Origin: Tausonia pullulans
Lineage: Eukaryota > Basidiomycota > Tremellomycetes > Cystofilobasidiales > Mrakiaceae
DNA: 64,000 nt
Reading direction: 5' to 3'
Assembly (NCBI GenBank): GCA_951802195.1
Contig: OX637633.1
Span: 434,001-498,000, forward strand
Shown here: positions 1,660 to 64,000 of the stretch, one piece after another
Numbering within the stretch: position 1 is the first letter of the stretch
How the letters are laid out: each line of letters begins with the position of its first letter
Made by a program: the position numbers and the translations under genes
The notes under the pieces: generated by a model
The model's input: only the letters and a program-made list of their open reading frames with translations
Databases searched by the model: none
Told to the model about the DNA's origin: nothing

Positions 1660-3157
1660 TTACTCCTCTTCGCCCTCGCCCTCGCGCCTCTTCCTGCCCT
1701 CATCAGCAGCCTCGACAGACGCAGCAGTAGCAGCGGACTCGCCCGCCGCCGGCCCCTCCCTCCGAGGTGACCTCTCCCGCTCCCTCGGAGGAGGCGACGG
1801 GCTCCTCCTCCTCGACCTGCCAGGCGACGGGCTCCTCTCCCGCCTAGCGGGCGAGCGCGACCTCTCCCTGTCTCTCCTCGGCGGGCTCGGCGACCTTCCC
1901 CTCCGAGGCGGAGGCGAACGGCGGCGATCATCATAGTCTCCACCGCGGGTACCCCGGGGAGGGGGAGGGGGGCCACGGGAGTCCGAGTCGTACCGCCAGG
2001 CGGAAGAAGGGGTGTTCTTGGCCCACTGGCACGAGATGCGGCGGCCCTCGATGGAGCGGCCGTGCCTTGTATGGGAGCGAGCAGGCGTCAGCGAGGAAAA
2101 AGACAAAGAGATGGAGGGGAGGGTGATGACTGACATGTCATAGTACGCGTCCTCAGCGGCGAGTTCAGAGCGGAACTCGACAAAAGCGTAGCTAGGAGGA
2201 CGCAAGAGCAAAGTATCAGCATCAGTGACGAGAGGGACTAGCTGACAAGTGTGTGCTAAGAGGGAAAAAAGCGAGGAGTTGGACGGTTCGACGGGTGAGG
2301 TGGGTGAAGGGCGGAAACGCGACAGAAGAGACAGGGACGGGTGGTGGATTCGCGTCGTCGGATCGTGGTCCAGTCCTCTGCGCTCGGAACGGCGAGCCGA
2401 CTCGATTTTTTGACGGGCAAAGAGGACGACGAAGATGCGGAACTTTGCCTATCAACACGGTGAGGAGGGGCCTGCCTGGTCGAGTCGTGAACGACAAGCG
2501 CCTGATGACGACGGAAGGACGCCTCTGCCTTCCTCCTCTTCGGCGGCGGCGATGAACAAACGACGACGGCTCAAGCGGCGGCGAAATGGGCTGAAAAAAG
2601 CAGAAAGAACAAAGCTGGTAGTGCAAGTGAGACTCCGAAACTTACGGAGAGGAAGAGGCTGACTTCAACGCGGCTATGTAGGAAGAAGAACGCGATGGAA
2701 GGAAAGGTTGGCCAGGCTCACGCGACTCGCCAGACCGCCTGAAGCGTGCAGAGGTACTCACGAATGTCGCAGCGAACGAGACGACCATAACGCTCAAACT
2801 CATAGGCAAGGTCCCTGGCCCGAAGATTGGCTGGTCGTGAGGTCGAAAGGCAAGAAAGAGGTCAGCAACGTCATGATGACGGCGCGTCGAGCGCGCGAGG
2901 TCGAAAAGAAGGCTTGAAAAGGGAAAGCAAGCGACTCACCACTGAAGCCAGAAACGAACTGCAGGGCGGCATAGAAGTGTGGTCAGCAGGGCGAGAACAG
3001 AACCGGAGGCCTGAGGCAAGTCGAGTGGAGCTGACAAGGATGGTCCTGGACTGAGGGGCGAAGCAGAAGGCCAGAGGGTTTGCAGCGTCAGCGGGAGGAC
3101 GTCCGAAAGCGAAGGAGAGTTAGAGCAGAGAGCAGGACTGACAGCACCGGAAGGCAT
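1660..3157 (-). CDS. SR-type splicing factor (one RRM plus RS domain)
   Basis: Six exons on the minus strand close in phase: 3157-3143, 2958-2940, 2830-2762, 2673-2646, 2191-2135, 2065-1660, giving 197 residues. The first exon is 15 nt and the second 19 nt. The N-terminal two fifths are an RRM (FVSGFSANLRARDLAYEF, then YAFVEFRSELAAEDAYYDM and GRSIEGRRISCQWA, the RNP2 and RNP1 strands). The rest is an Arg/Ser/Pro-rich tail with many RS, SPSP and RSRSP repeats. This is the architecture of SR proteins that bind exonic enhancers and recruit the spliceosome in the nucleus. The intron between exons 4 and 5 (2192-2645) is 454 nt, far longer than the usual 50-150 nt here. The gene is divergent from eIF2-gamma with about 290 nt between the starts. 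Which SR subfamily it belongs to cannot be decided by eye. Confidence 0.86.
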
Positions 3158-3448
3158 AACTTTTGGCAGAGCGAGTACGCGAGTGAAGGGGAATTTGGGT
3201 GGGTGGGTGGACCGTGGTGGATGGCAGGAAGAAGAGGTTAAGAAAAGGCGAGCTCGGTGATGCGGCTTTACTATTGTTTCTAAGGGACTCTCTAACCCAG
3301 TTGCCACCACTTGTAGGAGGCCTTCTTGACCCTCGACGACCACCAACTCGAACCCCTTCTCTTCCTCTCCAGGCCAGGCTCAGACCTCCCTCCCTCCTCC
3401 CCCACCTCTCTCCTCCAGCCCGCCAGCTCGCTCTCGTTGTCCCGCCCC

Positions 3449-5980
3449 ATGGCCGACTCTATCACCGACAAGCTGGCGTCGACCAGCCTTCAGGCCGACG
3501 TCGACCCGTCAAAGCTGGACGCTCTTTCGCCCGAGGTTATCTCTAAGCAGGCCACCAGTGCGTTGGCCATCTGGCTCCTTTTCTCCCCCGCTACTCAGGC
3601 TTTCTGATGCTCTCTATGTCTTGTGTGCTGTGTGTCCAGTCAACATCGGTACGTTTCTTCCTCTCTTCTCTCGGCGCAGAAGGCAGCAAACAAAGACACG
3701 CGCTGACTCCACTTTACGACCCTCTCTCCTATCAATGCGTCTGGCCTCTCTCGTCTCTAGGAACGATCGGTCACGTCGCCCACGGAAAGTCGACTGTCGT
3801 CAAGGCCATCTCGGGAGTCCTGACCGTTCGTTTCAAGAACGAGCTTGAGCGAAACATCACGATCAAGCTTGGTTACGCCAATGCCAAGGTCCGTTCCTCG
3901 CTCGCATCTTCATCCCCGCCGCGCAATGAGGAGGAGGGAGAAAGCATCTTCCGCCATTGGGATCCCCTTGTGGTCTCAGGAAGTGGAGAGGGGAAGGGAG
4001 GGGCAGCGACGGTCGTGTGCGGGGTCGAGCGCGCGACTCGCTGTCGTTGCCCTCGGGGAGGAGGCGAGAGAGCTCATGTGATGCCTCTCTCGTTTATCCG
4101 TCCTTCCCCATAGGGGACGACACATGTCATACTATAGCGGAGAGGCTGGCCTGTTGACGTAGTAGCGTGGCTGCTGCCAGCGAGAGGGATGCAAGGGCGC
4201 TGGAGAGAGAGCGCGTGTTCGTCCGCCGAAGCCTGGACTTTTCTGCGACGACAGACCGATGGCCTCTACTTCGTCGTCCATCCCTTGCCTATTGCCTGTA
4301 GGCGGCGGACGTATTCGTTATGAGCCTACGGCTCGTTCTGTGAGAGCCAGAGCTCTCCCAAACGGCGAGGGTCACCCTCCTGCCCACGCCTCTTGGTCGG
4401 CGCGGGAAGTCTCTGCCAGGGCGACGCGCGACTGCTACCTGCTGCCCCTTTACCAGCGAGTCCGGACTGACCTACCCCACCCGTCTCTCCCTCCTTTCCA
4501 GATCTACAAGTGCCAGGAGGAGTCTTGCCCCCGCCCCGGCTGCTACAAGTCGTACCCGTCGTCAAAGGAGGACCACCCGGCATGCGAGCGGCCAGGCTGC
4601 AAGGGCACGATGAAGCTCGTCCGACACGTCTCCTTCGTTGGTGCGTTCCTGGCTTCCTCGTCTCTGTATAAGAAAGGGGACTTTGAACTGACTTGGGAGT
4701 TGTATTTCTGGCACGTGTGTTCAGACTGCCCTGGTCACGAGTGAGTCACGCGCGCTCATGCAAGCATGTGTGCATCTCTTTCCTGACATGTTTCCCCCCA
4801 GCGTTCTTATGGCCACCATGCTTACGGGAGCCGCCGTCATGGACGGTGCCCTCCTCCTCATCGCCGCCAACGAGTCGTGCCCTCAGCCCCAGACTTCGGA
4901 GCATCTGGCCGCGCTCGAGCTCATGGGCCAAGAGCACATCATCATTCTTCAGAACAAGGTCGACCTCATCCGAGAGCAGGCAGCCCGGGAGCAGATGGAG
5001 GAGATCCGCAAGTTTGTCGACGCGACCGTCGCTCGCAAGGCGCCCATCATCCCCATCTCGGCGCAGCTGAAGTACAACGTCGATACCGTCAATGAGTACA
5101 TCTGCACCAAGATCCCCGTCCCACCGCGCGACTTCACGTCGACTCCGAGGATGATCATCATTCGGTCGTTTGACGTCAACAAGCCGGGATCGGAGGTTGA
5201 TGACCTCAAGGGTGGTGTCGCCGGAGGATCGATCCTCAACGGCGTCCTTCGTGTGAGTCTACCTCGTTGCTCGACCTCTTTTTTTCGCTGCGGACGATTG
5301 ACCCGTGATTCCCTTCACTCGCGTCCCCTCCACAGCTCCAGCAGTTCATTGAGATTCGTCCGGGAATCATCACTAAGAAGGAGGACGGAAAGTTCGACTG
5401 CAAGCCGATTATCTCCAAGGTCGTCTCCCTTTTTGCCGAGCACAACGACCTCCGGTTCGCCGTCCCTGGTGGACTCATCGGTGTCGGAACCAAGATCGAC
5501 CCGACCATGTGCCGTGCCGACCGACTCGTCGGACACGTCCTCTCCAATGTCGGTCACGGCATGGACATCTACACGGAGCTTGAGGTTCAGTGTAAGTACG
5601 GAATGTGCCTGGATCGATAACGAGCCCGAACACACGACCTGATCGCTCCTCTTCCACCGCGTGCAGGCTTCATGCTCCGACGACTCCTCGGAGTCCGCAC
5701 TGAGGGCAAGGAGAAGCAGACCAAGGTTGCCAAGCTCACCAAGGGCGAGGTCCTCCTCGTCAACATCGGCGCTACCGCCTCTGGAGCGCGCGTTGTGTCC
5801 GTCAAGGCCGACATGGCCAAGATTGTCCTCCAGTCACCCGTTTGCACCGAGGTTGACGAGAAGATTGCTCTTTCCCGGAGGATCGACAAGCACTGGCGGC
5901 TTATCGGTTGGGGAAAGGTCCGGCGCGGTGTCATCCTGGATGTCACGCCGGCCGAGCTGCCGGAGGGCGCCTCGGCTTAG
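3449..5980 (+). CDS. GCD11: Translation initiation factor eIF2 gamma subunit
   Basis: Eight exons in phase: 3449-3557, 3640-3648, 3761-3888, 4502-4640, 4725-4740, 4802-5252, 5336-5591, 5667-5980, giving 473 residues, the usual family length. It is the GTPase of the eIF2 complex that carries initiator Met-tRNA to the 40S subunit in the cytosol. Visible motifs are G1 [10 protein letters not shown]3 DCPGHD, G4 NKVD and SAQ (G5), plus the eIF2-gamma-specific cysteine cluster ([11 protein letters not shown] ... CERPGC) between switch regions, and the C-terminal beta-barrel domains ending in [10 protein letters not shown]. Two exons are tiny (9 and 16 nt) and the intron before the cysteine-cluster exon is 613 nt. 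The start ATG at 3449 begins MADSITDKL and lies after a CT-rich leader. Identification is secure; only the exact edges of the 9-nt exon rest on phase and splice signals. Confidence 0.97.
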
Positions 5981-58948: not shown

Positions 58949-59029
58949 TAATGGTGCCGGGAATTGAACCCGGGCCTAGTGCATGCTGCTAATGGCAAGC
59001 ACCAATGATAGCCACTTCACCACACCATT
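58949..59029 (-). tRNA. tRNA-Gly (GCC) with 9-nt intron
   Basis: Eighty-one nt on the minus strand. Acceptor arms AATGGTG and CACCATT pair fully with discriminator A, the D arm holds AGTGGCTATCA, the T arm CCGGG-TTCAATT-CCCGG is perfect. The anticodon stem GGTGC/GCACT (one G-U) encloses TTGCCA, a 9-nt insert at the canonical position after base 37, and T. The anticodon is therefore GCC and the insert is a tRNA intron. The acceptor starting with A is unusual for tRNA-Gly, so identity rests on the anticodon. The 5' end faces the LINE that begins about 20 nt away. Confidence 0.8.
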
Positions 59030-59050
59030 GCAATAGATCTTGAGGATCTC

Positions 59051-60991
59051 ATGTGCTTGTTAAACCTCATTCCCAAACATCGCCCGAGGAGTCAACCACC
59101 ACCAGGTCAATCCAGGTCACCCTACCTTATGCCTAGTGAATCAACCCCCAAGCGACTCCAAGAAGCCCTCAAGGCTCCCAAGGATCCCCCAGACCCTCCC
59201 TCTCCAGCAAAGAGAAAGAGCGGATCCGATGAAACCCCCAGCGTCCAGGACGCGACCAATACGCCCTCTCGCGTCGACGAACGTCCCCAAACGCTCGCCA
59301 ACAAACCCACCCTCAGCCCACCTACCCATCCGACCAGTCCTAGCACCCCTAGCACTCCTACCAACCCTACCAACCCTACCAACCCTACCAACCCTACCAC
59401 GCCCCACATCCATATCAGCCCCACGGCCCTCCTCTCTTCTCCCTCCCCCCTCCGCAGAACCCCTGCAACCCCCTCAACTCGCCGTATTACGCGGTCGAGC
59501 TCAGCCATCAGCGACCTCAATGCCGCTCTATCCTCAACGTCCGAAGTGACGCATCCCACACCGTCTCGCTCCACAGGCGAGACTCTCTCTCAACAACCTC
59601 TCTTCGTCCCCGGCGCCGCGTCGCCCGTGCCGGCGAACCCCGCCGACACTCGCACTCGCAATCGCGCCGCCGCGAAATCCCAGCCGAACGCCATCGGCCG
59701 CTCATATGCGCACGCCGCAAAACAGGCTCATTCTACAAACTCAGCTGCGAGGCAACGTGACTCGTCTAGCACCCAGCCCGGGTTCACCTTCGTCTTCGGA
59801 ACCGATCAACAACCCCCGCAGGATAATACCCCAATCGCCCCAGCCTTGGCTACCGACCGCGGGAACTGTCTAGCCATCTCAGTCCCTCGAGATACCACTC
59901 CTTTCGAGATCTCTCTCGCAATCTCAAAGTGCGACGAACGACTGTCTTTCATGATCCGTCCTGTCAAGGACCCAAAAGACAGAATGCTCCTTATAGTCAA
60001 CTCCCGAGGAAATGCTCAAGACATCTTGACTCAACTACAGGCCCTCCCGCTGAATGTGAGAGGCGTCAAACCCCAGATCCACGCGTGCTACAATTCCCAA
60101 AACAAGCTCCTGCAAGAAGGTCTGCTGGTGAACTTCGAAGACGAAGACGGAGTGGAGGAAGCTTTTCGCAAACAAGTAGAAGCTTCTGGAGACAGAGTCA
60201 TCATATTCCAGCGTCAGTATTACGCCCGCCTACCCGGCGTCCCAACTGGCCGGGTTAGAGTCCTGCTCGACCTTTCTGGCTCCAAGACGATGCCAAGGGC
60301 GAATGCATTCCCTCAACAGCTACCCGGCTGGGTCAACCAACATGTCATCTTCAAACCTGTCCAACCTGGCACTGGGACGAACTCTCCAGCTCGACCAGCC
60401 TCGTCATACTGCTATTACTGCCACTCATTTGAGCACGCTCGTGCCAAGTGTCCTACCGCTCCAGAGTGTGGCGGATGCGGATCGCACGCTCACCCATCGG
60501 CCCGATGCCCAGGTCGTCCAAAGGCAAATCTTCCAGCGAGTGCACGAGCACCAACCGAAGGACCCCCCCAACGGCCTGTCGAACCGGGACCAGACCTGGA
60601 TGGTTTCCAGCTTGTACAAAAATCCAAGAGGAGGTCACTGAACAGGCCGACTGAAGCCATGACGGAGGTGACCACACCCCCTGCCCACGCCAGCCCCTCC
60701 CACTCCCACTCAGAGCAAGCACCGCGCAATGCGGGCTCGCAACCCATTCGCACGCTGAGCGCCCTAGAGGAGGACAACGAGGGGGGTCTGGAGAGGACAG
60801 AAGACGGGATGCAGATCGAAGACGAGCATCCATCCCCCACTCCACCTCCCCTGTCACCATCGTCCCCCCCCACCCCCATCCCCATCCCCGCCATCTTCGC
60901 TCCCCCTGAACCCACCCTCCACTCCTTCTCTCATCCCCTCCACGCCGTCCTCCCAGGCATCCATCGAGCGCACCCTCGTGACCTTGGCTGA
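59051..60991 (+). CDS. LINE ORF1 (gag-like, two CCHC zinc knuckles)
   Basis: A 646-codon frame; the ATG at 59129 (MPSESTPKRLQEALK) is another possible start. The N-terminal third is Pro/Ser/Thr-rich with a TNP repeat. The centre is a basic, RRM-like region (NCLAISVPRDTTPFEISLAI ... GLLVNFEDEDGVEEAFRKQV). At the C-terminal side two knuckles of spacing C-x2-C-x4-H-x4-C are adjacent: CYYCHSFEHARAKC and CGGCGSHAHPSARC. A nucleic-acid chaperone and RNA-packaging role is known for such ORF1 proteins. The end is again Pro-rich. Confidence 0.9.
   Translation: MCLLNLIPKHRPRSQPPPGQSRSPYLMPSESTPKRLQEALKAPKDPPDPPSPAKRKSGSDETPSVQDATNTPSRVDERPQTLANKPTLSPPTHPTSPSTPSTPTNPTNPTNPTNPTTPHIHISPTALLSSPSPLRRTPATPSTRRITRSSSAISDLNAALSSTSEVTHPTPSRSTGETLSQQPLFVPGAASPVPANPADTRTRNRAAAKSQPNAIGRSYAHAAKQAHSTNSAARQRDSSSTQPGFTFVFGTDQQPPQDNTPIAPALATDRGNCLAISVPRDTTPFEISLAISKCDERLSFMIRPVKDPKDRMLLIVNSRGNAQDILTQLQALPLNVRGVKPQIHACYNSQNKLLQEGLLVNFEDEDGVEEAFRKQVEASGDRVIIFQRQYYARLPGVPTGRVRVLLDLSGSKTMPRANAFPQQLPGWVNQHVIFKPVQPGTGTNSPARPASSYCYYCHSFEHARAKCPTAPECGGCGSHAHPSARCPGRPKANLPASARAPTEGPPQRPVEPGPDLDGFQLVQKSKRRSLNRPTEAMTEVTTPPAHASPSHSHSEQAPRNAGSQPIRTLSALEEDNEGGLERTEDGMQIEDEHPSPTPPPLSPSSPPTPIPIPAIFAPPEPTLHSFSHPLHAVLPGIHRAHPRDLG
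59361..59396 (+). repeat. 9-bp tandem repeat (ccaacccta, four units)
   Basis: Four perfect units in ORF1 of copy A encode a repeated Thr-Asn-Pro. Confidence 0.95.
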
Positions 60992-61012
60992 AGCCGAGGA
61001 CATGGAAGAATA

Positions 61013-62167
61013 ATGGTGTACAACGATGTACAGATCGTCGCGGCGAACATCCAGAGGGTGTTCACGCGAGATCGCGCCCGCAGTCTCCTCCTCTCCCTCT
61101 ATTCACGATCCAAGGCTGACATATACCTTCTCTCAGAAGTGGCATGCACAACACCAGATCAGGTAGCGACCTGGACAGCCGAGTGTGAAGATATGGGCTT
61201 CGGCTCGATCTTTACGGTCGGCTGCCAGACTGCCATCCTCTGGCGGCATGCCTCTCGATTCCTCCCTCCCAATACCCCTCCGACTAGGATCAGATCCATA
61301 TCCCGCTCCTCCCCCATCCTACGAACCAACCTGACGGATGCCGTTTTTGTTATCGCCGGCGAAGCCGTCAGGGTGGCTGCAGTCTACGCCCCCTGCCGAG
61401 ACAGCCAATCGAATGGCCGCTCGACAAAGGAGTTCCTCTCTACTCTATCTCGCAAGATACCTGCCCACTCTGACATTCCTCTCCTCCTGGGCGGGGACTG
61501 GAACTGTGTGGAGGACAGCTACCTCGACGGGATGAGCCCATTTACCCAGAACGTGGGGAAGGAGGAAATGTGCCGGCTGGTCCGGGACTTTGCCCTCTCC
61601 GACCCATACCGATCCTTATACCCGCTCCAGCGCGAGTACACTAACTATACTGGCATCACGCGAGCAGATCGCCGCATCGATCGCTTCTACCTGTCCCCTC
61701 TACTCGCTAGCCGAGCCGTGCGACAGCGCTTCCTGCCACGCCCGACCGGCCATCTCTACTCTAGCCACAAGCCGATCGCACTCAGCCTCACCTTCCCCGG
61801 TGCAATAGAGCACGGTCCCGGATCGTACAAGATCGGAACACACCTTCTGAAGATTACCGGTTTTGTTGAGTACTTCCTCTACCACGTTCCCAAGTGGTAC
61901 CAAGATGCGCTCACCGAGATCAGGGACCCCTTCGAGGCCTGGGACGAGACCAAGCTTCAGATAGCGGATCACGCGTCTGACATCTCAAGACACCTCGCCC
62001 GAATGAGCAGAGTGTCAGGCGGGGATCCACACAGGTCGATCCTCCATGGCCACGCTCTTCGAGCCCACCTCGAACCAGCCAACACAAGCGAGTATGCCGT
62101 CAAGCAGCGACTCAAGATCGTCCGCCAGGCCGACACTATCGCAGCCCTGCGGCCGCTGGGTTGTTGA
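61013..62167 (+). CDS. LINE ORF2, endonuclease part only
   Basis: 384 codons, of which about 381 are element sequence. The exonuclease-endonuclease-phosphatase fold is clear: VAANIQRVF (Asn), IYLLSEV (catalytic Glu), VAAVYAPCRD, LLLGGDWNCVEDSYLDG (Asp/Asn), RADRRIDRFYLSPLL and YSSHKPIAL (the SDH-like final motif, here SSH). This enzyme nicks the target DNA. The following linker ends at the palindrome centre and the frame closes in the spacer. The reverse transcriptase domain is missing. Confidence 0.9.
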   Translation: MVYNDVQIVAANIQRVFTRDRARSLLLSLYSRSKADIYLLSEVACTTPDQVATWTAECEDMGFGSIFTVGCQTAILWRHASRFLPPNTPPTRIRSISRSSPILRTNLTDAVFVIAGEAVRVAAVYAPCRDSQSNGRSTKEFLSTLSRKIPAHSDIPLLLGGDWNCVEDSYLDGMSPFTQNVGKEEMCRLVRDFALSDPYRSLYPLQREYTNYTGITRADRRIDRFYLSPLLASRAVRQRFLPRPTGHLYSSHKPIALSLTFPGAIEHGPGSYKIGTHLLKITGFVEYFLYHVPKWYQDALTEIRDPFEAWDETKLQIADHASDISRHLARMSRVSGGDPHRSILHGHALRAHLEPANTSEYAVKQRLKIVRQADTIAALRPLGC

Positions 62168-62456
62168 GTGGCCGCAGGGCTGCGATAGTGTCGGCCTGGC
62201 GGACGATCTTGAGTCGCTGCTTGACGGCATACTCGCTTGTGTTGGCTGGTTCGAGGTGGGCTCGAAGAGCGTGGCCATGGAGGATCGACCTGTGTGGATC
62301 CCCGCCTGACACTCTGCTCATTCGGGCGAGGTGTCTTGAGATGTCAGACGCGTGATCCGCTATCTGAAGCTTGGTCTCGTCCCAGGCCTCGAAGGGGTCC
62401 CTGATCTCGGTGAGCGCATCTTGGTACCACTTGGGAACGTGGTAGAGGAAGTACTC
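61868..62456. repeat. Palindrome: 287-bp inverted arms, 15-bp spacer
   Basis: Bases 61868-62154 and the reverse complement of 62170-62456 appear identical on reading, separated by the spacer 62155-62169. Outside these borders the two copies differ clearly (about ten differences in the next 80 bases). Confidence 0.9.
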
Positions 62457-64000
62457 TACAAAGCCTGTAATCTTCAGCAGGTGTGTGCCGATCTTATATG
62501 ATCCGAGACCGTGCTCTATTGCATCGCGGAAGGCGAGGCTGAGTGCGATCGGCTAGCGGGTAGAGGAGAAGATTCGATGCGGCGATCTGCCCGCGTGATG
62601 CCAGTATGGTTAGAGTATTTTGGGTAGATTGGCTTATCCCGTCGAGGTAGCTGTCCTCCACATAGTTCCAGTCCCCGCCCAGCAGGAGGGGAATGTCAGA
62701 GTGGACAGATACCTTGCGAGATGGAGTAGAGAGGAACTCCTTTGTCGAACGGCCATTCGTATGGCTGTCTCTGCAGGGGACATAGACTGCCGCCACCTTG
62801 ACGGCCTCGCCGGCGATGGTGAACACGGAATCCGTCAGGTTGGTTGGCAAGATGGGGGAGGGAGGAGCGGGAGATCGATCTGATCCTGGTTGGAAGGGTA
62901 TCGAAAAAAAATATGAGACATGCCGCCAAAGGATGGCAGTCTGGCAGTCGACCGTAAAAATCGAGCCGAAGCCCATATCTTTACACTCAGCTGTCCAGAT
63001 AGCCGTCTGTTCTGGTGTTGTGCATGCCACTTCCTCTGGTTGTTCGCCACGATGATCTAGACGTTGTTGTACACCGTTGTTCTTGCATGTCCTCGGTTTC
63101 AGCCAAGGTCACGAGGGTGCGCTCGATGGATGCCTGAGAGGAAGGCGTTGAGAGGATGTGAGAAGGAGTGGGGGATGGTTCAGATGGGGGATGGTTCAGA
63201 TGGGGGAGGAGATGAAGGATATGGAGGAGGTGGCTGTGGCGGTGCAGCGAAGGTTGGTGGTGTGAGAGGCGGGGAGGAAGGTGGGTGATCGTCAACGAGC
63301 TGAGGCTCGTCGTCGATTCTCATCTCTATCCCCCCAACGCCTTTGTCAGGGACTATCGTCCTGCGTTCGGGCTACGTCCCCGCGCCCTGTAGAGCATGAT
63401 CTGGTAGGAGGAGGCTGGTGCGAGTGAAACGTTGAGTCACGTCCTTCATGGCCTCAGTTAGCCTGTTCAATGCCCTCTTTTTGGCCTTGTGTACGAGTTG
63501 AAACCCGTCCGAGTTCCGCTCCGGGACCGCGGTTGGTTGAGGGCTTCCAGTTAGTGGTTGCGCACCCACTGGGAGGTTTGCCTTAGGGCGGCCTGGACAT
63601 CGGGCAGATTGGTGGGAGCGTAACCCGCGACCGCTACACTCTGGGGCAGAGGGACGCTTGGGCCGAGCTTGCTCCATTGAGTGGTAATAATTACAGTACG
63701 TCGAAGTTCGCCGTTTAGGGGACATCAGGGTGGATGCGGCTTGGATGGGTCTGAAGATGAGCTCATGGTTCTCCCACTTGGTGAGTTATTGGTAGTATGA
63801 GTCGGCCTTCGGCATCCTCTTTGAACCAGACAGGTGAGCAGAACTCGGACTCTGCCCGTTGGCGCCGTGGGTAGTCTGGGGTCAAGCTGGACACAATCTC
63901 CGGAGCTTGCTACTTGTTTGCGAGACTCCTCCTCAACTTCGTCTTCGTCTTCGAAGTTCTCAAGCAGCCCTTCTTGTAGGAGTTCGGTTTGGGTGTTGAA
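62170..64000 (-). mobile_element. LINE copy B, reverse orientation, diverged
   Basis: Same element as copy A read on the minus strand, running off the window. It holds the ORF2 linker (62170-62540), the endonuclease (about 62560-63030, reading ACTTPEQTAIWTAECKDMGF, VAAVYVPCRDSHTNGRSTKE, IPLLLGGDWNYVEDSYLDGI), the ORF1-ORF2 junction near 63050-63110 where the ORF2 start is changed, the Pro-rich ORF1 end, and the zinc-knuckle region (63372-63725, RTSTYCNYYHSMEQARPKRP, where knuckle cysteines are lost). The endonuclease lacks roughly 90 bp relative to copy A around 62610. Frames are broken, so this copy is dead and older than copy A. Confidence 0.9.
63170..63201 (+). repeat. 16-bp tandem duplication in LINE copy B
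   Basis: Two units of gggggatggttcagat in the Pro-rich end of ORF1 (copy B); copy A lacks this exact pattern. Confidence 0.85.

What the first reader, a model, noticed from the sequence alone, without database searches (positions are those of the whole stretch)
61868..62456. LINE palindrome with homogenised centre
Two copies of the same LINE meet head-on. The inner 287 bp of each arm look identical, whereas directly outside the copies drop to roughly 85-90 % similarity and copy B has deletions and broken frames. One explanation is a single inverted duplication followed by decay, but then the centre should decay too. The sharp border argues instead for recent arm-to-arm gene conversion, or a fold-back repair event joining two older copies, or an assembly fold-over. 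The 15-bp spacer is not part of either arm.
Basis: seen in the sequence. Interest (0 to 1): 0.75.

Follow-up and report, generated by a model that had tools for sequence, protein, structure and literature searches.

The report
LINE hairpin fold-back junction in fungus
Two copies of a jumping gene in a (probably fungal) chromosome are joined tail to tail at a small hairpin that the jumping gene itself carries, most likely by a DNA-copying slip in which the copying strand turned around at the hairpin; it is a clean natural example of a known kind of accident.

Summary
Two parts of the reading change. (1) The 15-bp spacer is not foreign: it is the loop of an 8-bp-stem hairpin native to this LINE, in copy B's orientation; of 75 genomic sites listed with the hairpin (≤3 mismatches) only this one has the palindromic junction. 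(2) Arm-to-arm homogenisation is not shown. Copy A is a uniformly young LINE, and its inner sequence occurs in other young copies; only copy B is a hybrid, young from the hairpin to 290 bp and old and decayed outside. B's young-type loop, absent from A's arm, argues mildly against plain arm-to-arm conversion. Best reading: a copying strand reversed at the LINE's own hairpin, with an in-register switch between young and old LINE ~290 bp away, probably deleting the 3' halves of two convergent LINEs. The mechanism class is known; order of events, donor and read support are untested. Noticed: in 30 examined 5' ends the LINE lies upstream of a tRNA gene (15) or abuts another LINE's tail (15).

The parts
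59093..62154 (+). LINE copy A: young, 5' end complete, ORF1 and the start of ORF2 (endonuclease part), cut off at the hairpin; the last ~2.7 kb (reverse transcriptase, 3' tail) is missing
   Evidence: 99.5% to full-length copy L026, 5 mismatches and 10 gap positions in 3,024 columns; Exo_endo_phos in the ORF2 piece; 5' end shared with the copies
61868..62154 (+). inner arm A, perfect 287 bp
62147..62154 (.). CTGCGGCC: one half of the native 8-bp inverted repeat, shared by A and by the distal stem of B (position of the template switch)
62155..62169 (-). 15-bp 'spacer' = loop of the native LINE hairpin, in B's orientation
   Evidence: identical to the native LINE sequence in young copies such as L002, L003, L005, L006
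62170..62456 (-). inner arm B, perfect 287 bp, young haplotype
62457..64000 (-). outer part of LINE copy B: old, decayed, other subfamily in part of ORF1; it goes on past the window to about C14:499020
   Evidence: among the matches listed, pieces of 150 bp or more are 67-88% identical and the best short one (112 bp) 93%; the list was cut and counts are lower bounds; profile
61013..62167 (+). truncated ORF2 of copy A (384 aa against 1,224 aa in L026)
58949..59029 (-). tRNA gene whose 5' end faces the 5' end of copy A, 63 bp away
   Evidence: ARAGORN: tRNA-Trp(cca) without introns, tRNA-Gly(gcc) with a 9-nt intron

Best explanation
Shown: two convergent LINE copies, young A and old B, are joined at a hairpin native to the element (stem CTGCGGCC/GGCCGCAG, 15-nt interruption). 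The loop is kept once, in B's orientation, and B is young-type from the hairpin to about 290 bp and old-type beyond, in homologous register. Inferred: during replication or break repair a growing strand switched template twice. One switch was homologous, between old LINE B and a young LINE (A itself or a near-identical copy) about 290 bp from the hairpin. The other was a turn-around at the 8-bp inverted repeat onto the opposite strand. The result is a short perfect palindrome flanked by diverged arms, with the 3' halves of both elements and whatever lay between lost. The sequence fits either direction: B's sense strand snapping back at the hairpin, or A's nascent strand jumping to the complementary strand. 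The loop's orientation speaks against a simple snap-back of A's own sense-strand end.
For: The 15-bp centre and both stem halves are the exact reverse complement of native LINE sequence. The hairpin is listed at 75 sites with up to 3 mismatches, this junction included, but the palindromic junction at 1 (up to 3 mismatches). Full-length copy C has only 2 inverted repeats with stem >=8 and loop <=20 in 5,844 bp, and the junction is on one of them. The hairpin folds as single-stranded DNA at -9.6 kcal/mol in L002 (perfect stem) and the same place in L026 at -3.0, though L002's z-score against shuffles is only -1.53, 16 of 200 shuffles folding as well. B's loop has the young type, found in 8 of 17 distinct copies compared. 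Inner B equals A's haplotype at all 37 positions, outside the spacer, at which two or more fetched loci differ from A. The step at offset 290 is sharp and in register. A's left flank has one match and B's right flank none beside itself above 88%, so no recent duplication of the flanks is seen.
Against: No ancestral (unrearranged) locus and no reads were available. A and the inner tract share no private marker, so copying from A itself is not proven. A's nearest relatives by substitutions (L004, L008 = L026) have an imperfect stem and another loop type, so the young tract may come from another copy. LINE mosaicism occurs here without any palindrome (8 of 190 pairs with a strong step), so B's border could be an earlier, separate conversion. 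Short hairpins of this size are no rarity: ten shuffles of copy C had 0-2 each. The turned-around product was not found at the element's other short hairpin, nor on the 3' side of this one.
Confidence: 0.55

Rival explanations
1. Two separate events: old copy B was first partly overwritten by a young LINE (ordinary gene conversion from any young copy, covering the hairpin and 290 bp), and later A and B were joined at the 8-bp hairpin stem.
For: Stepped mosaics among LINE copies exist apart from this locus; the young loop in B is explained; A need not be the donor.
Against: Needs two independent events within the short time since A inserted; the young tract ends at the very junction.
Confidence: 0.22
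2. One reading: the A-B palindrome formed first, with B old throughout, and arm-to-arm gene conversion later copied 287 bp of A onto B.
For: Identical centre with a sharp border. Conversion between arms of palindromes is known in other systems (recalled).
Against: The 15-bp loop is not in A's arm, yet B's loop is exactly young-type; at a divergence of about 12% an unchanged 15-mer has a probability of about 0.15 (worked by hand, 0.88 to the 15th power), so this is mild evidence. The inner sequence is shared by other young copies, so identity of the arms is not evidence of exchange between them.
Confidence: 0.08
3. Assembly or library artefact (chimeric or fold-over read).
For: No reads examined; long near-perfect palindromes are unstable in yeast (recalled), so a persisting one deserves suspicion.
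Against: A fold-over read would give identical arms for its whole length; here the arms part at 290 bp into a distinct old copy with one full-length match in the genome, itself, which runs into further sequence of the same 974-kb contig.
Confidence: 0.09
4. Reverse-transcription origin: a 3' end in LINE DNA ending ..GGCCGCAG primed on LINE RNA at CUGCGGCC and was extended to the RNA's 5' end, making A as cDNA.
For: A runs to the canonical 5' end and sits 63 bp from a tRNA gene like an ordinary insertion; stem pairing would allow such priming.
Against: Does not explain the young-to-old border in B; would need B's broken end to lie right at A's ordinary target site.
Confidence: 0.06

Closest known systems
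[quoted passage not shown] PMC10766183, passages seen)
   Same: Junction at a pre-existing short interrupted inverted repeat (2-14 bp in the yeast work), arms within 100 bp, interruption kept once, strand reversal.
   Different: No inverted triplication seen and no test for an origin; the inverted copy lasts only ~290 bp and then passes to another LINE; total repeat span is 31 bp, below the 40-80 bp most used in the yeast data.
Fold-back inverted duplications in the human genome (PMC3907307, passages seen)
   Same: Inverted microhomology at the turn (2-8 bp at 13 junctions there, 8 bp here) and hybrid repeats as partners (a hybrid L1 junction in one patient).
   Different: There the spacer is 0.77-70 kb and the duplications are of megabase size in the table rows seen; here the spacer is the 15-nt loop and the duplicated part ~290 bp.
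Gene conversion between palindrome arms (recalled, e.g. primate Y palindromes)
   Same: High identity near the centre with a defined tract.
   Different: Here the young tract includes a loop that is not in the other arm, and the 'homogenised' sequence is shared with other young copies of the family.
TRE5 non-LTR retrotransposons of Dictyostelium (PMC5006619, PMC5911963, passages seen), for the LINE family, not the palindrome
   Same: Non-LTR element lying a short fixed distance upstream of tRNA genes in a compact genome (about 50 bp there, 63-108 bp here).
   Different: Host probably a basidiomycete; no phylogeny was built; the best organism-named ORF2 relatives are in Microbotryum at 33-34%.

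Membership tests
Fold-back / template-switch junction at a short inverted repeat | Junction lies on a pre-existing short inverted repeat of the parental sequence | tested here: met
   Native CTGCGGCC..GGCCGCAG in other copies
Fold-back / template-switch junction at a short inverted repeat | Interruption between the repeats retained once, in one orientation | tested here: met
   15 bp at 62155-62169 = native loop in B's orientation
Fold-back / template-switch junction at a short inverted repeat | Sequence on the two sides of the turn identical at birth | tested here: met
   287 of 287 bp; beyond that the partner changes
ODIRA proper | Inverted triplication of a segment holding a replication origin | tested here: not met
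   Left flank has one match, itself; the right flank's only other match is 88% identical (which score only the best candidates); origin not tested. Not filed as ODIRA
Arm-to-arm gene conversion | Converted tract lies wholly within sequence present in both arms | tested here: inconclusive
   The young type in B continues through the 15-bp loop absent from A; 15 bp is short, chance about 0.15 by hand
Read fold-over artefact | Arms identical over their whole length | tested here: not met
   Identity steps down at 290 bp in register
Read fold-over artefact | No spanning reads | not testable with these tools
   No reads held
tRNA-targeted non-LTR retrotransposon (TRE5-like behaviour) | 5' end at a fixed side and distance from tRNA genes | tested here: met
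   15 of 30 held 5' ends (A included) are 63-108 bp from an ARAGORN tRNA call on the opposite strand (one of them, L051, named tRNA-Stop and doubtful); the other 15 have a LINE tail motif starting 26-45 bp upstream, 10 of them with a tRNA call within 1.5 kb and 5 without
tRNA-targeted non-LTR retrotransposon (TRE clade) | ORF2 groups with Dictyostelium TREs | not tested
   No tree built

The most novel reading that the evidence does not exclude
The hairpin inside this LINE's ORF2 is a mobile fragile site: each insertion carries a turn-around point, and convergent insertions at tRNA genes turn it into inverted rearrangements. A second rearrangement fits: L070 (C6:887900-890300) has element positions ~3120-4170 inverted in place, with one end within a few bases of the same hairpin and a shared GCCAT at that end. 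L070 was fetched because it carries the hairpin, so its closeness is partly a matter of choice.
Probability: 0.15. Interest if true: 0.6.

Novelty: new member of a known kind. Interest (0 to 1): 0.4.

Why it matters
It is a natural junction in which the turn-around point, the strand polarity and the place of a second, homologous switch can all be read from sequence, because the two partners differ in age. It also shows that a palindrome with an identical centre need not mean arm-to-arm conversion: the wider repeat family must be checked first. If the hairpin proves to be recurrently used, a mobile element would be spreading fold-back sites through a genome.

Tried and rejected
Hairpin as a general border of LINE mosaicism: among copies chosen by their match to the 403 bp left of the hairpin, borders seemed to sit at the hairpin, but that choice favours such a pattern. 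With 20 copies chosen by the hairpin motif alone (20 of the 75 sites), 8 of 190 pairs had a strong step, none at the hairpin (borders at about -739 to -511 and +455 to +828). That script looked for one border a pair, not nearer than 150 sites to an end, and left out pairs with under 1,200 comparable sites without counting them. Rejected for this sample.

Other turn-around products: none found on the 3' side of the same hairpin, none at the element's other short hairpin; both with up to 3 mismatches.

Spacer as foreign insert: rejected. tRNA remnant beside B's 5' end: none by ARAGORN in L010; Rfam at a permissive threshold on L010 4900-6000 gave only one sub-threshold snoRNA match, E 2.6. Donor of the inner tract: not resolvable, no private markers. 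Host species: not pursued beyond the Microbotryum hits. Relatives or other strains: not searched; the own genome has no relatives held.

Full report
Setting. The window is C14:434001-498000 of a 23.86-Mb genome in 21 contigs. The element is a LINE with ORF1 and, in copy L026, an ORF2 of 1,224 aa holding a reverse transcriptase (RVT_1) and an endonuclease-like domain (PF03372: 21.8 bits in L026, below the curated cut-off of 24.5, and 24.8 in copy A). The best ORF2 relatives come from sources without an organism name (36-37% identity); the best organism-named ones are from Microbotryum (33-34%), of 108 hits among the 7,993 candidates scored. This suggests a basidiomycete host, by inference only.

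Observation. The arms are exactly as described: 61868-62154 and 62170-62456 are perfect reverse complements, 15 bp apart. At offset 290 the identity falls at once: 15 mismatches in 113 bp. A step fits better than the two smooth rises tried. Arm A beyond the border stays 99-100% like L026 in every 100-bp bin; only arm B changes.

The spacer. In young copies such as L002 the LINE reads CTGCGGCC ACTCAACAACCCAGC GGCCGCAG. The window's centre is the exact reverse complement of that. Copy C, full-length, has two inverted repeats of stem 8 or more and loop 20 or less in 5,844 bp; ten simple shuffles had 0-2 each, so the hairpin itself is no rarity. That the junction falls on it is what matters. The hairpin motif is listed at 75 places with up to 3 mismatches, the junction included; the extended palindromic junction is at one.

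The partners. Copy A is young: 5 mismatches and 10 gap positions in 3,024 columns against L026, complete at its 5' end, without its last ~2.7 kb. Copy B outside the border is old: large deletions, broken frames, and only 67-88% identity to the listed matches of 150 bp or more. In part of ORF1 (1800-2299 bp from the centre) it is nearer to L016 (89-95%) than to A (63-78%). Inside the border B has the same haplotype as A, L002-L006, L008, L021, L023, L024 and L026 at the 37 positions, outside the spacer, where two or more loci differ from A (L003/L021, L005/L024 and L008/L026 are the same copies fetched twice, so these are seven distinct copies beside A). So equality of the two inner arms is not by itself evidence for exchange between them. 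B's loop is also young-type: 8 of 17 distinct copies compared have the same 15 bp. A's arm lacks the loop, so plain arm-to-arm conversion does not supply it, though 15 bp could be unchanged by chance (about 0.15, by hand).

Mechanism. The polarity is informative. Had A's own sense-strand end snapped back, the loop would stand in A's orientation. It stands in B's. So either B's sense strand snapped back, or A's nascent strand jumped to the complementary strand at the stem, as in the leading-to-lagging switch described for yeast (PMC10766183, passages). A second, homologous change of partner lies ~290 bp away. Fold-back inverted duplications with 2-8 bp of inverted microhomology and, in one case, a hybrid L1 are described in human (PMC3907307, passages). 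The left flank has one match and the right flank only an 88% paralogue: this fits a local deletion between convergent LINEs better than a fresh duplication. Order of the two switches, the donor and the enzymes are inferred.

Why convergent LINEs lie here. The family lies upstream of tRNA genes. Of 40 listed 5'-end matches 30 were held as loci, A among them. In 15 of 30 a tRNA call lies 63-108 bp away on the opposite strand (one, in L051, is named tRNA-Stop and is doubtful). In the other 15 of 30 a LINE tail motif (up to 3 substitutions) starts 26-45 bp upstream, that is, stacked insertions; 10 of these 15 have a tRNA call within 1.5 kb, 5 have none in the 1.5 kb held. As a yardstick, four tRNA calls were made in 90 kb of contiguous sequence here, one of them with a 1,351-nt intron and probably false. 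A lies beside a tRNA gene at 58949-59029; copy C, pointing the other way, lies on the tRNA-Phe side at C14:510268. LINEs inserted from the two tRNA genes therefore point at each other.

Results against the reading. The copies nearest to A (L004, L008 = L026) have an imperfect stem, so A may not have been the donor. Mosaic LINEs occur without a palindrome, so a separate earlier conversion of B remains possible. Turn-around products elsewhere were not found. No reads or relatives could be used.

Novelty. For the palindrome the class of mechanism is known, and this is a new example. For the tRNA habit of the LINE family, four searches of the paper library were made: 5 of 5 papers listed, 15 of 84, 1 of 1, none. 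By title and start of abstract none reports such a family in basidiomycetes. Passages of the review PMC5911963 name LTR elements for fungi and say that LINE target specificity is not fully worked out. The library lacks most subscription papers.

Noticed in passing
loci L028-L057; window 58949-59093; C14:509215-510342: The LINE family lies upstream of tRNA genes: 15 of 30 held 5' ends are 63-108 bp from a tRNA call on the opposite strand and the other 15 have a LINE tail motif just upstream (stacked insertions). Four literature searches, seen as listings (15 of 84 in one), showed no such LINE family in basidiomycetes.
   Followed up: partly
G000 C2:367000-398000 and C11:449000-470000: Tandem same-strand LINE arrays with spacings of about 6.1-6.3 kb and 5.8-5.9 kb.
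   Followed up: no
L010 5021-9371 (C14:499021-503371) against L078 (C4:710809-715121): A 4.35-kb block at 87% identity to one place on C4 lies exactly between B's 5' end and the poly-A tail of LINE C; the 9.5 kb fetched around the C4 place show no LINE match to this region. How a duplicated block came to be bounded by two LINE ends is unexplained.
   Followed up: partly
L070 (C6:887900-890300): In-place inversion of about 1.05 kb inside a LINE copy, one end within a few bases of the same hairpin. Of 70 loci checked, some overlapping, 2 had LINE pieces in both orientations: L070 and L028, where they look like separate neighbouring pieces.
   Followed up: partly
LINE copies L002-L008, L016, L026, C, L058-L077: Copies are mosaics of subfamilies with stepped identity, e.g. 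L003 and L005 differ at 1 of 1,474 positions before the hairpin and at 46 of 1,510 from the hairpin on.
   Followed up: partly
L011 5238-6226: 95-bp tandem repeats and two LINE 3'-end pieces stacked between LINE C and tRNA-Phe.
   Followed up: no
L010 5019 (C14:499020): B keeps its 5' end but has neither a tRNA gene nor a LINE tail directly next to it, unlike the 30 examined copies.
   Followed up: partly
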